This document shows positions 29,801 through 34,836 of a stretch of DNA of 64,000 bases, piece after piece. The DNA is from Micromonospora echinofusca. Its GTDB lineage: Bacteria; Actinomycetota; Actinomycetes; Mycobacteriales; Micromonosporaceae. The stretch's first letter is position 1. Every line of letters starts with the position of its first letter. The position numbers and the translations under genes are program-made. The stretch covers positions 5,607,001-5,671,000 of the forward strand of contig NZ_LT607733.1 of NCBI RefSeq assembly GCF_900091445.1, in the 5' to 3' direction. Under the pieces are notes generated by a model. It was not told the origin of the DNA. It saw only the letters and a list, made by a program, of their open reading frames with translations, and ran no database searches.

Positions 29801-30532
29801 ATGACGACGGGGAACGACATCGGCGGGGGCGACATCCTGCGGGTGCTCGGCGAGGACGGGGAACTGCGGGCGCGGCTCGACGCCGAGCTGACCGCCTTCA
29901 ACAACCGGGCGACCGGCGCGGACGACGAGGCCGGCCTCTGCGTCCGGGTCGACGACGCCGACGGCGGGCTGGTCGCCGGCCTGACCGGGTGGACCTGGGG
30001 CGGCTGCGCCGGGATCGACATGGTGTGGGTGCGCGAGGACCGCCGTGGCGAGGGCTGGGGCGGCCGGCTGCTGCGCGCCGCCGAGGAGGAGGCCCGCCGG
30101 CGCGGCTGCACGGAGGTCTCGGTCGCCTCGTTCTCGTTCCAGGCGCCGGAGTTCTACCGCCGGCACGGCTACCTCGACACGGGTCGCCGGGAGGGCATCC
30201 CCGGGGGCCACGTCGACCACCACTTCTTCAAGTCGCTGGTCACCGACCCCGCCGCCGCCGTGCGCCTGGTGGCGCTGGTGGAGTTGGCCGCCGACGCGGT
30301 GGACGCCGGCCGGCGGTACGAGGACGCGGCGCTCGGGCTGCTCGGGCGGCACGGCGGCCGGCTGGAGCGCCGGCTGCGCACCGGCGACGGGCGTACGGAG
30401 GTGCATCTGATCCGGTTCGACACGCGCGACGGCTACGCCGGCTTCCTCGCCGACCCGCAGCGGGTGGCGCTCCGCGGCGAGCTGGGCGGGGCCGCCCCGA
30501 CCGCCCGGGTGCTGGAGGTCCACGAGGTCTGA
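29801..30532 (+). CDS. GNAT acetyltransferase fused to a C-terminal dimeric-barrel-like segment
   Basis: A 243-aa protein. Residues ~10-145 form a GNAT domain with the acetyl-CoA loop VREDRRGEGWGGRLL (~72-86) and FQAPEFYRRHGY (~112). The last ~90 residues, ending GFLADPQRVALRGELGG and VLEVHEV, resemble a DUF1330/EthD-type ferredoxin-like fold. The pairing is uncommon. The start is 7 nt after CATACT, a leaderless arrangement. It lies just upstream of the peptide operon on the same strand, with 111 bp between, and is probably not part of it. Confidence 0.75.
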   Translation: MTTGNDIGGGDILRVLGEDGELRARLDAELTAFNNRATGADDEAGLCVRVDDADGGLVAGLTGWTWGGCAGIDMVWVREDRRGEGWGGRLLRAAEEEARRRGCTEVSVASFSFQAPEFYRRHGYLDTGRREGIPGGHVDHHFFKSLVTDPAAAVRLVALVELAADAVDAGRRYEDAALGLLGRHGGRLERRLRTGDGRTEVHLIRFDTRDGYAGFLADPQRVALRGELGGAAPTARVLEVHEV

Positions 30533-30643
30533 ACCGGCGCGGGAGCGAACCGACCCGCTCCGCTCCACGGGGTGTGTTCACTGTGGACGCTCTGCTACGG
30601 TGCTTCGCAGTGATCAACGCCGATTAGTGAGGGGAGCTCCCGC

Positions 30644-30733
30644 ATGACCGAGCAGATCGAGGCCTTCGAGCCGGTGGCGTCCGACGACTACGACCAGGAA
30701 CTGACGTGCCTGGAGCCTCCGGTCGAGGCCTGA
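30644..30733 (+). CDS. 29-aa candidate RiPP precursor peptide
   Basis: A short ORF of 29 residues starting MTEQIEAFEPVASDDYDQE and ending LTCLEPPVEA. It is highly acidic, with a single Cys and a Thr-Cys pair near the C terminus. GGGGAG lies 7 nt upstream of ATG 30644, an excellent ribosome site, and the gene is the first of a co-directional operon 21 bp before a SagB-type peptide dehydrogenase. These features fit a ribosomal precursor: acidic leader, short C-terminal core. No known precursor family was recognised. It is not detectable by length-filtered gene callers. Confidence 0.65.
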   Translation: MTEQIEAFEPVASDDYDQELTCLEPPVEA

Positions 30734-30748
30734 CCGGTCGAAGCCTGA
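30719..30748 (+). repeat. 15-bp tandem duplication at the end of the peptide gene
   Basis: CCGGTCGAGGCCTGA (30719-30733), coding for the last residues PVEA and the stop, is followed immediately by CCGGTCGAAGCCTGA (30734-30748), one base different. Confidence 0.8.
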
Positions 30749-30754
30749 GTAGTC

Positions 30755-31849
30755 ATGCGCGTCCGTGTGTCGCGGCTGGTCGTCTTCCTGTGGCGTGACG
30801 GCCAACTGGTCTGCGACGACCCGCTGCGGCACCGGCAGTTCGCGTTGACTGTCGAGGCGGAGAGGCTGCTGCGCGGCTACGCCGACTGGGCCGAGCTCGA
30901 CGGCCGGCTCGCGCAGCAGCTCCTCGACGCCCACGTCCTCGTCGCCGAGGGTTCGCCCGAACACGACCGGGAGGAACGCCTCGGCGCCTGGCGCGACCTG
31001 GGGCCGGCGGCCACCTACTACCACCTGGCCAGCCGTACGCTCGGCAGCGACGTCTTCCGCTCGGCGGCGCAGGACGCGGCGGTGCTGCGCGCCAAGAGCG
31101 GCCAGCCCGCGCCGGTCAAGGAGCACGACGGTCCCCGGATCGCCCTGCCCCCCACCGACCCGCCCCCGGTCGACTTCACCACGGTCCTCGCGGCCCGGCG
31201 GTCGACGCGGTGGTTCGACCCGGACGACCCGGTGCCGCTGCCGGCGTTCGCCGCCCTGCTGCGCTGGACGGCCGGGGTCCGCCGCGAGGTGGACGTCTCC
31301 GGAGTCGGCACGGCGCTGCTCAAGACCGCCCCCTCCGGCGGGGCCCGCCACCCGGTCGAGGTCTACCCGGTGGTCCGCGACGTGGAGGGGCTGGAGCCCG
31401 GGATCTACCACTACGCGGTGCGCCGCCACGAGCTGGTGCGGCTCGCGCCCGCGCCCGGCGGGGACCGGCTGCGCGAGTGGTGCGGCGGGCAGCCGCACGC
31501 CGCCCAGGCCGGCTTCCTGCTGATGTACGCGGCGGTGCTCGACCGCACCGTGTGGAAGTACCCGGCGGCCCGCGCCTACCGCGCGCTCCTGCTCGACGTC
31601 GGTCACCTGAGCCAGACCGTCTACCTCACCGCGACGGCGCTCGGGCTCGGGACGTTCTTCACCGCCGCCACCCGCGACGCCCCCGTCGAGGACGCCCTCG
31701 GCCTGTCCTGGCCGGACGAGGTCTTCCTCGGCGTCTCCGGCGTCGGCGTGCCGCACCCCGCCGAGCGGGACCGCCAGGCGGCGATGCTCGCGGGCGGCGA
31801 CGCGGCGTTCTCCTTCCCCCCGGACGCCTGGCACGGACGCGGCGAATGA
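30755..31849 (+). CDS. SagB-type FMN peptide dehydrogenase
   Basis: A 364-aa nitroreductase-fold protein. Residues ~1-95 form a small winged-helix-like N-terminal segment (RVSRLVVFLWRDGQ then LTVEAERLLRGYADW), often present before stand-alone SagB domains and possibly a leader-binding module (inference). The FMN domain (~140-355) shows RRSTRWFDP, TAPSGGARHPVEVYPV and YRALLLDVGHLSQTVYLTA. A Lys-Tyr pair (K268-Y269, in WKYPAARAYR) matches the pair reported as important in azoline-oxidising SagB/McbC enzymes. No cyclodehydratase is adjacent, so its substrate is unclear. It overlaps the next gene by 4 nt. Confidence 0.85.
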   Translation: MRVRVSRLVVFLWRDGQLVCDDPLRHRQFALTVEAERLLRGYADWAELDGRLAQQLLDAHVLVAEGSPEHDREERLGAWRDLGPAATYYHLASRTLGSDVFRSAAQDAAVLRAKSGQPAPVKEHDGPRIALPPTDPPPVDFTTVLAARRSTRWFDPDDPVPLPAFAALLRWTAGVRREVDVSGVGTALLKTAPSGGARHPVEVYPVVRDVEGLEPGIYHYAVRRHELVRLAPAPGGDRLREWCGGQPHAAQAGFLLMYAAVLDRTVWKYPAARAYRALLLDVGHLSQTVYLTATALGLGTFFTAATRDAPVEDALGLSWPDEVFLGVSGVGVPHPAERDRQAAMLAGGDAAFSFPPDAWHGRGE

Positions 31850-32865
31850 CGCCGAGGGTGACCGTCGACCTGGCCCGGCTGGACGCGAACATCGCGCGCT
31901 GCACCGGACGCGCGGCCGAGGCCGGGGTGGCCTTACGGGCACACGTCAAGGGGCACCGGAGCCCCGAGATCGCCGCCCGGCAGGTGGCCGCCGGCGCGGT
32001 GGGCGTCGCCGTCCACTCGGCGGCCGAGGCCGAGGCCTACGTCGCGGTGGGCGTGCCGGACGTGACGGTGGCGTGGCCGTGGCGCGACACGTGGCGGTGG
32101 AGCAGGTTCGCCCGGCTCGCGCGGCACTGCGCGGTGACGGTGCACGTGGACCACCCCGACGCGGTGACCGGGCTCGGCGCGGCGGCCGAGGCCCACGGCG
32201 TCGAACTCGGCGTACGGATCGAGGTCGACACGGGCCTGCACCGCGTCGGCGTCGACCCCGACGCGGCCGGGGAGCTGGCCGCCACGATCGCCAGGACCGG
32301 TGGGCTGCGCCTGTCGGGCGTGACCGGCTACGTGGGGATCACCGGCCCCGACGACGCCCGCGACCGGGTCGAGCTGGGCCGCAGCCGGGCACGCCTGCTG
32401 GTGTCCGTCGCGGAGCGCATCCGCGCGACCGGGACGCCCTGCCCGCAGGTGAGCGTCGGGGGCACCCCGACCCTCGCCGGGGCGCTGGACGTGGCCGGCG
32501 TGACCGAGGTGTGCGCCGGCGCGTACGCGCTGCTCGACGGCGGGCTGGCCCGGCTGGGCGAGTGCGACCCGGCGGCGGTCGCGATCGCCGTCACCACCAC
32601 CGTCACCGGCACCGACGGGCAGGCGCTGCGCACCGACGCCGACGAGCTGCTGGCGGGCGCCGACCAGACCTGGATGAGCGGTGTCGTGCTGACCGCGCCC
32701 GACGGCGCGCCGGTCCGCCCGGAGTCGGTGTCGGTGGGCGACGAGCTGCGGGTGCTGCCCGGGCACGTGTGCCCGGTGGTGGCCCGCCGACCGCTGCTGC
32801 ACGTGCTCGACGCCGGCGAACCGGTGGCCCGATGGCAGGCACTGGTGCTCCCGGACCGGGCATGA
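31846..32865 (+). CDS. Type III-fold PLP enzyme, D-serine dehydratase/D-threonine aldolase-like
   Basis: A 339-aa protein of the alanine racemase-fold DSD1/DTA family. The PLP lysine lies in RAHVKGHRSPEIA (~26-38). The barrel contains VHSAAEAEAYV and GVRIEVDTGLHRVG (~115-128). The C-terminal beta domain carries VLPGHVCPVVA, whose H-x-C fits the zinc site of eukaryotic-type D-serine dehydratase rather than the H-x-D of D-threonine aldolase. It should act on a D- or beta-hydroxy amino acid. ATG 31846 overlaps the SagB stop and its own stop overlaps the MFS start, so translation is coupled at both ends. Confidence 0.82.
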   Translation: MTPRVTVDLARLDANIARCTGRAAEAGVALRAHVKGHRSPEIAARQVAAGAVGVAVHSAAEAEAYVAVGVPDVTVAWPWRDTWRWSRFARLARHCAVTVHVDHPDAVTGLGAAAEAHGVELGVRIEVDTGLHRVGVDPDAAGELAATIARTGGLRLSGVTGYVGITGPDDARDRVELGRSRARLLVSVAERIRATGTPCPQVSVGGTPTLAGALDVAGVTEVCAGAYALLDGGLARLGECDPAAVAIAVTTTVTGTDGQALRTDADELLAGADQTWMSGVVLTAPDGAPVRPESVSVGDELRVLPGHVCPVVARRPLLHVLDAGEPVARWQALVLPDRA

Positions 32866-34109
32866 CCCAGGCGGTCGCGCCCCTGGACCGTCCGGCCGAC
32901 CCGCTGCGCGAGCGCCGGTTCGTCCTGTTCGCCACGGCCAGGACGATCTCCGTCTTCGGCAACGCGGTCGGCCCGCTCGCGCTGACCTTCGCCGTGCTGG
33001 ACCTTCCCGGCTCCTCGCCCCCGGCGCTGTCGCTCGTGCTCGCCGCGATCTCGGTGCCCCGGATCGCGCTGATGCTGCTCGGCGGCGTCATCGGCGACCG
33101 GCTGCCCCGGCACCGCGTACTCGTGGCGGCGGAGCTGATGTGCGGCAGCGCGTACGGCGCGATGACCCTCCTCGTGCTGACCGGGCGGGCGAGCGTCGCC
33201 GCCCTCGCCGTCTGCGCGGCCGTCGCCGGCACCGCCTCCGCGCTGCTGCTGCCGTCGCTGAACGGGCTGACCGCCGAGCTGGTCGCGCCGCAGGCGCGGC
33301 AGCGCGGCAACGCTCTGCTGCGGCTGGGTACGAACACCGCCACGGTGGCGGGCTTCGCTGCGGGCGGCGCGCTGATCACCTGGCTCGGGCCGGGTTGGGC
33401 CCTGGCCCTCGACGCGGCCACGTTCGCCGTCGCCGCCGGCCTTCTCGCGCGGCTGCGCCTCGCCGGGACGGCCCGGACGACCAGGCGGAACCTGCCGGCC
33501 GAGCTGCGCGACGGCTGGCGGGAGTTCGTCCGGCGGCGCTGGCTGTGGCAGATCGTGCTCGCCGCAGCCGTGATCAACGCCGCCGTCGGGGTCACCTTCG
33601 GGCTCGCCGGGCCACTGCTCGCCAGGGCGCACCTGGGCGGTGCGGGCGCCTGGTCCGGCGTCCTCGCCGGGTACGCGGTGGGCATGTTCGCCGGCGTGCT
33701 CGTCGCGATGCGGATCAGGACGACCCGCCCCCTGCGCACGGCCGTACTCGCCGTGTCGATGCTGGGGCTGCCGGCGCTGCTGCTCGGCTCCGGCGCCGCC
33801 CTGCCGTTCGTGATCCTCGCCGCCGTGCTGGCCGGGGTGGCCTTCGACGTCTTCGGGGTGCTGTGGGAGACGACCGTCCAGTCCGAGGTGCCGACGGAGG
33901 CCATGTCCCGCGTGAGCGCGTACGAGTGGCTGGGGGCGGTGGGGCTGGGACCGCCGGTCATGATCGCCGCCGGCTTCGTCGTGCCCGGGATCGGCGTGCG
34001 GACCACCCTGCTCGGCCTGGCCGCGGTGATCGCCGTCGCCGCGCTCGTCCCGTTGGCCAGTTCCTCTGTCCGGCACTACGAAAGGCAACCCGATGGCCGA
34101 GTACGTTGA
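32862..34109 (+). CDS. MFS transporter (exporter type)
   Basis: A 415-aa major facilitator protein with 10-12 helices. It has ARTISVFGNAVGPLALTFAV in helix 1, the loop motif GGVIGDRLPRHRVL (~66-79, the MFS motif A region) and LRLGTNTATVAGFAAGGAL in helix 5. The MFS_3/enterobactin-exporter-like layout suggests small-molecule efflux. It starts by ATGA overlap with the PLP enzyme and ends 17 nt inside the methyltransferase gene, so it belongs to the peptide operon and is the natural candidate for product export or self-resistance. Confidence 0.88.
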   Translation: MTQAVAPLDRPADPLRERRFVLFATARTISVFGNAVGPLALTFAVLDLPGSSPPALSLVLAAISVPRIALMLLGGVIGDRLPRHRVLVAAELMCGSAYGAMTLLVLTGRASVAALAVCAAVAGTASALLLPSLNGLTAELVAPQARQRGNALLRLGTNTATVAGFAAGGALITWLGPGWALALDAATFAVAAGLLARLRLAGTARTTRRNLPAELRDGWREFVRRRWLWQIVLAAAVINAAVGVTFGLAGPLLARAHLGGAGAWSGVLAGYAVGMFAGVLVAMRIRTTRPLRTAVLAVSMLGLPALLLGSGAALPFVILAAVLAGVAFDVFGVLWETTVQSEVPTEAMSRVSAYEWLGAVGLGPPVMIAAGFVVPGIGVRTTLLGLAAVIAVAALVPLASSSVRHYERQPDGRVR

Positions 34110-34836
34110 CGCCTTCGTCACGGCGTATGACCGCTTCTGGGCGCCGTACCCGCAGCGGATGGGTGACGCGTGGCTGCGCCTGCACGGGCACGTGGCACCA
34201 GGAGCCGAGCGGAGCGTGCTCGACGTCGGCTGCGGCACCGGCATCGTGGCCGCCCGGTTCGCCTCCGTCGGCTACCGGGTCGTCGGGGTCGACGTCTCCG
34301 AGGCGATGATCGCCCGCGCCCGCGTACGGCTGGCCGGCACCGACGCGGTGCTGATCGCCGCGGACGCCGCGGACTTCGAGGTGCCGGTCCCCTGCGCGTT
34401 CGCGGTCTCCACGTACGACGTCCTCAACCACGTCGGCGGGATCGACCGGGTCCGCGCCTACCTGCGCTGCGTGCATGGGGCGGTCGCGCCGGGCGGCTGG
34501 TTCGGCTTCGACATGTCCACGGTCAAGGGCCTCCTCGCCGAGGTGCCGCCCGTCGCCCGGCAGGACGGGACCGTCTCGGTCGAGGTCGCGCGGGGCCCGC
34601 TCGACGGCGACCGCCGCCCGCTGCACGTCACCGGTGAGCTACGCACCGACGACGGCCACGCGACCCCCTTCTCCACGACGATCACCAACACCGCCCATCC
34701 GGTCGCCGACGTGCTCTCCGCCCTGGCGGACGCCGGCTGGGTGACGAGTCACGTCGCGGCCGTCGACGACCTGCTCACCCCGGTACCGGACCCGGAGGCA
34801 CTGCCCCGGGTCGCCGTGCTCGCCCGACGCCCCTGA
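34093..34836 (+). CDS. Class I SAM-dependent methyltransferase
   Basis: A 247-aa methyltransferase with a Rossmann core: motif I LDVGCGTGIVAARF (~42-55), VVGVDVSEAMIARARVRL (~60-77), the acidic VSTYDVLNHVGG (~100) and WFGFDMSTVKGL post-motif (~138). It is related to bacterial small-molecule methyltransferases; the acceptor is unknown. It overlaps the MFS gene by 17 nt and is the last gene of the operon. A perfect palindrome (34849-34864) follows. Confidence 0.88.
   Translation: MAEYVDAFVTAYDRFWAPYPQRMGDAWLRLHGHVAPGAERSVLDVGCGTGIVAARFASVGYRVVGVDVSEAMIARARVRLAGTDAVLIAADAADFEVPVPCAFAVSTYDVLNHVGGIDRVRAYLRCVHGAVAPGGWFGFDMSTVKGLLAEVPPVARQDGTVSVEVARGPLDGDRRPLHVTGELRTDDGHATPFSTTITNTAHPVADVLSALADAGWVTSHVAAVDDLLTPVPDPEALPRVAVLARRP

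What the first reader, a model, noticed from the sequence alone, without database searches (positions are those of the whole stretch)
30644..34836. Candidate minimal RiPP-like operon: 29-aa peptide, SagB dehydrogenase, DSD/DTA-type PLP enzyme, exporter, methyltransferase
Seen: a 29-aa ORF with an excellent ribosome site, then four genes joined by a 21-bp gap, ATGA, ATGA and a 17-nt overlap. Known: SagB-type FMN enzymes oxidise azolines on RiPP precursors, normally with a YcaO cyclodehydratase; stand-alone SagB genes beside short peptides are poorly described. Inference: the peptide (acidic, one Cys in a Thr-Cys pair) is the substrate or scaffold of the SagB enzyme, the PLP enzyme acts on an amino acid attached to or released from it, the methyltransferase tailors the product and the MFS exports it. 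The combination of SagB with a type III PLP enzyme and no YcaO, LanB or radical SAM partner matches no RiPP class that I know.
Basis: partly seen in the sequence, partly recalled or inferred. Interest (0 to 1): 0.88.

Follow-up and report, generated by a model that had tools for sequence, protein, structure and literature searches.

The report
YcaO-free SagB–PLP peptide cassette
A small Micromonospora gene set looks like a new kind of modified-peptide pathway: a conserved 29-residue peptide gene sits in front of a flavin oxidase, an unusual vitamin-B6 enzyme, an exporter and a methyltransferase, and two distant relatives without the oxidase carry only the last 8 or so residues of the peptide, as a 10-11 residue minigene.

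Summary
The same 29-aa ORF precedes SagB-PLP-MFS-MT in all five Micromonospora genomes found, with mostly third-position changes. Three of four SagB-PLP-MFS cassettes outside the genus carry a diverged peptide with the frame F-E-x4-D-[DE]-Y-x4-[ST]-C and other tails (CLKPAF, CMIPCAS, CKIALIVAPS). Two SagB-less loci in two families (PLP-MFS-MT) have a minigene instead: MRCLEPPVES and MEPCLDPPEDV, i.e. the CLEPPVE tail alone. So the N-terminal part travels with SagB and the tail with PLP and MT: leader and core of a RiPP-type precursor. Looser leaders precede some more distant SagB relatives, one beside YcaO and TfuA. SagB models like the azoline oxidase ThcOx; the PLP enzyme keeps the PLP-Lys and metal ligands of D-hydroxyaspartate/D-serine dehydratases but differs at two otherwise constant positions. 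Best reading: a YcaO-free SagB/PLP RiPP family with leader-dependent and leaderless branches. The chemistry is unproven; a regulatory upstream peptide is the main rival. Against: tethered AlphaFold did not dock the peptide, and one cassette (Streptomyces-like) has no recognisable peptide.

The parts
30563..30643 (+). conserved 5' region, presumed promoter, and ribosome site (AGGGGAG 30630-30636)
   Evidence: start of the block shared with M. orduensis; alignment of five Micromonospora loci; promoter not tested
30644..30733 (+). 29-aa precursor-like peptide ORF; F8 E9 D14 Y16 C22 invariant, T21 Ser/Thr
30707..30730 (+). tail CLEPPVEA, the only part kept as a 10-11 aa minigene in SagB-less loci (MRCLEPPVES, MEPCLDPPEDV)
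30719..30748 (+). 15-bp tandem duplication (CCGGTCGAGGCCTGA / CCGGTCGAAGCCTGA) across the peptide stop; explains the 21-bp gap against 6 bp in M. orduensis and G1427
30755..31849 (+). SagB-like FMN oxidoreductase with N-terminal winged-helix (RRE-like) domain
31846..32865 (+). type III PLP enzyme, short relative of D-threo-3-hydroxyaspartate / D-serine dehydratase; Lys35, His307, Cys309 kept
32862..34109 (+). MFS exporter, present in all eleven cassettes of the set
34093..34836 (+). SAM methyltransferase; homologue adjacent only in loci whose peptide tail is CL[DE]PP

Best explanation
A RiPP-type (ribosomally made, then modified) peptide cassette without a cyclodehydratase. Shown: a conserved peptide with a leader-like N-terminus found only with SagB and a tail found with PLP and MFS, with or without SagB. 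Inferred: SagB's N-terminal RRE-like domain binds the F-E-x4-D-[DE]-Y leader, and its FMN domain dehydrogenates the tail at or near the [ST]-Cys pair (an azoline-free oxidation, or of an azoline made by some other means). An unidentified peptidase then frees the tail. The PLP enzyme, which needs a free alpha-amine, acts on it; the most economical guess is the exposed N-terminal Cys (elimination or epimerisation). The methyltransferase alkylates tails of type CL[DE]PPx[ED], perhaps on an acidic residue, and the MFS exports the product. SagB-less loci make the tail directly as a 10-11 aa minigene.
For: Peptide kept with mostly synonymous change in five Micromonospora and as diverged leader-bearing forms upstream of SagB in three other genera. 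SagB-less loci L033 and L067 have PLP-MFS-MT preceded by MRCLEPPVES and MEPCLDPPEDV, with ribosome sites; G017 has no close SagB anywhere (best 3.6e-14); L067 has none in 19 kb, and G1204, which by its handle number was in the sample, none at 1e-68. An adjacent MT homologue occurs in 7 of 7 loci with a CL[DE]PP tail and 0 of 4 without. Looser leaders precede distant SagB genes: Nonomuraea beside YcaO and TfuA, Microbispora-like with three leader-like repeats, Priestia SagB-MFS. SagB model matches the azoline oxidase ThcOx through both domains. Lys268 in 53 of 62 aligned rows (Arg in 9), Tyr269 in 62 of 62 (60 of the 120 listed hits were aligned). PLP-Lys, His and Cys ligands kept in 20 of 20 clade rows (25 of 68 PLP hits plus 3 loci aligned).
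Against: No product, no expression data. AlphaFold of the peptide tethered to SagB left residues 1-26 under pLDDT 50, so leader binding is not supported by the model. The L039 cassette has no peptide with the leader frame; its candidates (e.g. MTSYDGVEQTRLVPTTIWRD, no clear ribosome site) are weak. The MT link rests on three lineages, and L029 and L042 have other methyltransferase-like genes 1-2 kb beyond the cassette. No peptidase is seen in the conserved set. SagB is normally an azoline oxidase and no YcaO is in the cassette. The PLP enzyme might act on a free amino acid. Only two SagB-less loci could be read at DNA level.
Confidence: 0.67

Rival explanations
1. The peptide is a regulatory upstream ORF: the ribosome pauses on it (Pro-Pro near the stop) and so controls an efflux/methyltransferase operon by attenuation.
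For: Short ORF at the operon start; PP in the CL[DE]PP tails; stable stem-loops between peptide and next gene in L033, L067, L029, L042 (z -1.9 to -2.6).
Against: Other tails have no PP (CLKPAF, CMIPCAS, CKIALIVAPS); the N-terminal frame tracks SagB; a Microbispora-like relative has leader-like repeats; a similar leader precedes SagB-YcaO-TfuA; the window and L043 have no unusual stem-loop (z 0.25, -1.3). A hairpin after a precursor gene is also known from microcin C (PMC6495379, passages).
Confidence: 0.15
2. An ordinary azole peptide: a YcaO elsewhere in the genome makes a thiazoline at Thr-Cys and this SagB oxidises it.
For: Two YcaO genes in the genome; SagB closest in fold to ThcOx and keeps Lys-Tyr; leader kin beside YcaO in Nonomuraea.
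Against: Both YcaO lie over 0.5 Mb away, each near another SagB-like gene; no YcaO was noticed beside the other cassettes, though their neighbours were not all scanned; SagB-less loci keep the Cys tail.
Confidence: 0.1
3. The peptide is a scaffold, as in pearlin pathways (recalled): a residue is built on its C-terminus and released as a small molecule.
For: Last residue varies (A/S/V); a PLP enzyme of a free-amino-acid family is present.
Against: None of the four cassette genes is of the aminoacyl-adding LanB type; the conserved part is the internal CL[DE]PP, not the end.
Confidence: 0.05

Closest known systems
Linear azol(in)e peptides / TOMMs with SagB-McbC-ThcOx oxidases
   Same: SagB-type oxidase, short leader-core peptide with Cys next to Ser/Thr, RRE-like domain
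   Different: no YcaO cyclodehydratase in the cassette; PLP enzyme instead; leaderless branch without SagB
Graspetide branch 6 clusters with SagB-like enzyme (PMC8939145, passage)
   Same: SagB-like enzyme beside a short precursor, YcaO not mentioned in that passage
   Different: ATP-grasp ligase there, none among the cassette genes here
Microcin C and biarylitides (minigene RiPPs; PMC6495379, PMC12951456, passages)
   Same: precursor of 5-7 residues with little or no leader; hairpin after mccA as after the L033/L067 minigenes
   Different: other modifying enzymes (P450 in biarylitides; MccB in microcin C, recalled); PLP enzyme and methyltransferase here
D-threo-3-hydroxyaspartate dehydratase / D-serine dehydratase / D-threonine aldolase
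   Same: fold and PLP-Lys; H-x-C metal ligands as in the dehydratases
   Different: short C-terminal domain; Tyr162 where DSD-like rows have His (20 of 20 against 8 of 8), Cys, Val or Gly at 223 where they have Arg

Membership tests
SagB family peptide dehydrogenase (TIGR03605) | score over NCBIfam cut-off 78.4 | tested here: met
   115.9 bits
Putative peptide maturation dehydrogenase (TIGR04511) | score over cut-off 240 | tested here: not met
   190.7 bits
Linear azol(in)e peptide / TOMM | YcaO cyclodehydratase in the cluster | tested here: not met
   YcaO only at C1:5070102 and 6933958, cassette at about 5637644-5641836
Linear azol(in)e peptide / TOMM | leader-core precursor with Cys/Ser/Thr core | tested here: met
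   sequence pattern only
Linear azol(in)e peptide / TOMM | azole or azoline in the product | not testable with these tools
   no product data
RiPP (broad) | ribosomal precursor linked to modification enzymes across genera | tested here: met
   one of eleven cassettes (L039) lacks a recognisable peptide
RiPP (broad) | RRE-type domain binds the leader | tested here: inconclusive
   N-terminal domain of strands then helices, but peptide not docked
RiPP (broad) | peptide is covalently modified | not testable with these tools
   needs mass spectrometry
D-serine dehydratase / BhcC / DTHADH | PLP-Lys and His/Cys metal ligands | tested here: met
   K35, H307, C309 in 20 of 20 clade rows
D-serine dehydratase / BhcC / DTHADH | equivalog score (BhcC cut-off 690) | tested here: not met
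   119 bits; clade-wide changes at 162 and 223
Daptide methyltransferase (NF041820) | score over cut-off 175 | tested here: not met
   38.8 bits

The most novel reading that the evidence does not exclude
A new RiPP class in which a type III fold PLP enzyme works on a ribosomal peptide, with SagB oxidising a peptide without any cyclodehydratase, and with natural leader-dependent and leaderless branches sharing the tail CL[DE]PPx[ED]: gain or loss of the leader together with gain or loss of the leader-reading oxidase.
Probability: 0.4. Interest if true: 0.87.

Novelty: new variant of a known kind. Interest (0 to 1): 0.74.

Why it matters
If true it adds a peptide class that cluster finders keyed on YcaO, LanB or radical SAM would not look for, and 10-11 codon minigenes that gene callers usually skip. 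It gives a natural experiment for what a RiPP leader is for: the same tail with leader plus SagB, and without either. It makes testable whether SagB oxidases work without an azoline and whether a DSD-like PLP enzyme can use a peptide.

Tried and rejected
Tethered AlphaFold of peptide plus SagB to see leader docking: peptide disordered, so not used as support. PLP hits L034-L036, L068, L069 (40-42% identity) look like ordinary DSD-like genes without the cassette and were left out of the cassette counts. Plasmid search with PLP: no match. SagB loci L030 (beside an ATP-grasp gene) and L032 (behind a 34-aa ORF, MNMSATDHVVVELSDDHLPAEVLNAWVERTSDID) show no leader-frame peptide; distant loci L015-L024 were only motif-scanned, without a leader-frame hit (L015's upstream stretch also read). 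That the peptide is a chance ORF is rejected. The VIA-align list is filled by the FMN domain, so absence of PqqD-type chains there says nothing.
Full report
1. Observation. The window lies in a 7.0-Mb genome at C1:5607001-5671000. It is a Micromonospora: SagB is 88% identical to that of M. orduensis, and its PLP enzyme is 97% identical to one named M. echinofusca.

2. Is the peptide real? Of 160 Micromonospora genomes searched with the PLP enzyme at 1e-45, 5 hit, the window's own included. All five carry peptide-SagB-PLP-MFS-MT. Peptide differences are few and mostly third-position (window to M. orduensis 2/0/6, to G1427 1/0/5). Flanking genes are largely shared among the five, so these five are not independent. 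The window and two relatives carry a 15-bp duplication at the peptide stop.

3. Outside the genus. SagB searches found the SagB-PLP-MFS cassette in G354, G1086 and G1097 (family f19; 3 of 297 at 1e-68) and G918 (1 of 392 at 1e-60 in the chaplin-rich genus taken to be Streptomyces); 0 of 111 in a sample of that family at 1e-60. In the class sample 5 of 394 hit at 1e-50: own, G354, and G315, G429, G604, the last three without PLP within the 19 kb fetched. Peptides: L042 MSAAETSKSETPLVAFEELGEDEYSAPQTCLKPAF, L043 MNTTESDLPIFEPIIEDEYDAPQSCMIPCAS, L029 (GTG start) VPVAEHNDVPAFEAPYEDDYAMPESCKIALIVAPS. Aligned with the Micromonospora forms, F8, E9, D14, Y16 and C22 are invariant (6 rows, 3 of them Micromonospora). 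L039 (G918) has no such peptide.

4. SagB-less loci. In 300 Micromonosporaceae genomes the PLP query at 1e-40 hit 6: own, G173 (M. orduensis), G017, and three with ordinary DSD-like genes. In 256 genomes of f19 at 1e-38 it hit 6: the three cassettes above, G1204, and two ordinary DSD-like genes. G017 (L033) and G1204 (L067) have PLP-MFS-MT, no SagB in the stretch, and a short ORF with a ribosome site before PLP: MRCLEPPVES and MEPCLDPPEDV. A longer GTG start for the L033 ORF is possible but has no clear ribosome site and no leader frame. In a tree of 36 PLP rows these two fall in one clade of 14 with support 100/100; the DNA of the other 12 was not available, so whether they too lack SagB is unknown.

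5. What the split says. Leader frame with SagB, tail with PLP/MFS/MT. A homologue of this MT adjacent to the MFS occurs in 7 of 7 loci with a CL[DE]PP tail and 0 of 4 without; five of the seven are Micromonospora, so three lineages, and L029 and L042 have other methyltransferase-like genes 1-2 kb beyond the cassette. A search for CL[DE]PP before a stop in 722 kb of fetched loci, overlaps included, in six frames found nothing outside these cassettes; the looser C[LM]xP-stop form had six hits elsewhere.

6. Wider kin. Some more distant SagB relatives have short peptides of similar frame: Nonomuraea gerenzanensis with YcaO and TfuA, a Microbispora-like locus with three repeats, a Priestia plasmid SagB-MFS pair. 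These frames are looser (F to Y one residue closer; Lys for Glu in Priestia) and were noticed by eye or by a regex fitted after seeing the first peptides. L030, L032 and the distant loci L015-L024 have none.

7. Enzymes. SagB fusion model pLDDT 89.6, peptide part disordered; best chains ThcOx 5lq4 and 8pz5; sequence kin ThcOx/CyaGox, McbC, BmdC. Its N-terminal elements run strands (39-68) then helices (70-111, with a short strand at 99-101), as the RRE definition in PMC12710340 (passages) implies. The importance of the Lys-Tyr pair in azoline dehydrogenases is recalled (Melby and colleagues), not from a call. Known leader-RRE contacts use a Phe and acidic residues (TclE) or FxxxB (PMC10634744, passages); the leader here has Phe and acids but not a strict FxxxB. 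PLP model pLDDT 95.9, best D-threo-3-hydroxyaspartate dehydratase.

8. Hairpins. Spacer after the peptide: L033 z -2.64, L067 -1.93, L029 -2.50, L042 -2.57, L043 -1.30, window 0.25. Microcin C has a terminator between mccA and mccB that keeps the peptide in excess (PMC6495379, passages), so hairpins fit both a precursor and an attenuator.

9. Literature. Searches (open-access PMC library only, exact terms) listed no paper that I recognised as joining SagB with a DSD/DTA-type PLP enzyme in a RiPP setting; only passages of six papers were read, and subscription papers are not covered.

10. Verdict. Peptide and cassette are real; RiPP-type pathway likely; exact chemistry open.

Noticed in passing
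L031 7846-8172 (G315): Precursor-like ORF with leader-like repeats (FEVHQDDYTQPESA twice, FETHEDAYSEPHA once) and NHNE segments, then a TPR protein, then a SagB relative; looks like a multi-core peptide.
   Followed up: partly
L070 5782-9525 (Nonomuraea gerenzanensis): 42-aa leader-frame peptide, SagB, YcaO, TfuA: a likely modified-peptide cluster; no feature is listed there in the collection's (incomplete) gene table.
   Followed up: partly
L071 4500-7336 (Priestia sp. J2 plasmid): 26-aa ORF MTVFKPCENEYKIRVNLEHGETSPSK before SagB-MFS, not in the collection's gene table; possible Bacillota member.
   Followed up: partly
L050 5764-8500 (G000:C1 near 2160174): Second SagB-MFS pair in the host genome behind a 20-aa ORF MAFDIVIVETNEEVLNHGAA with good ribosome site, near an AMP-ligase and a reductase.
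   Followed up: partly
L030 9904-12104 (G604): ATP-grasp (RimK-like) gene directly before a SagB relative, reminiscent of graspetide branch 6.
   Followed up: partly
L033 12421-13083 and L067 5972-6613: LysE-type exporter gene close to both SagB-less cassettes; named by eye only.
   Followed up: no
window 29801-30532; L014; L049: GNAT gene before the peptide is absent from that place in M. orduensis (L014) and G1427 (L049) but present in L047 and L048; a piece of it lies after MT in L014.
   Followed up: partly
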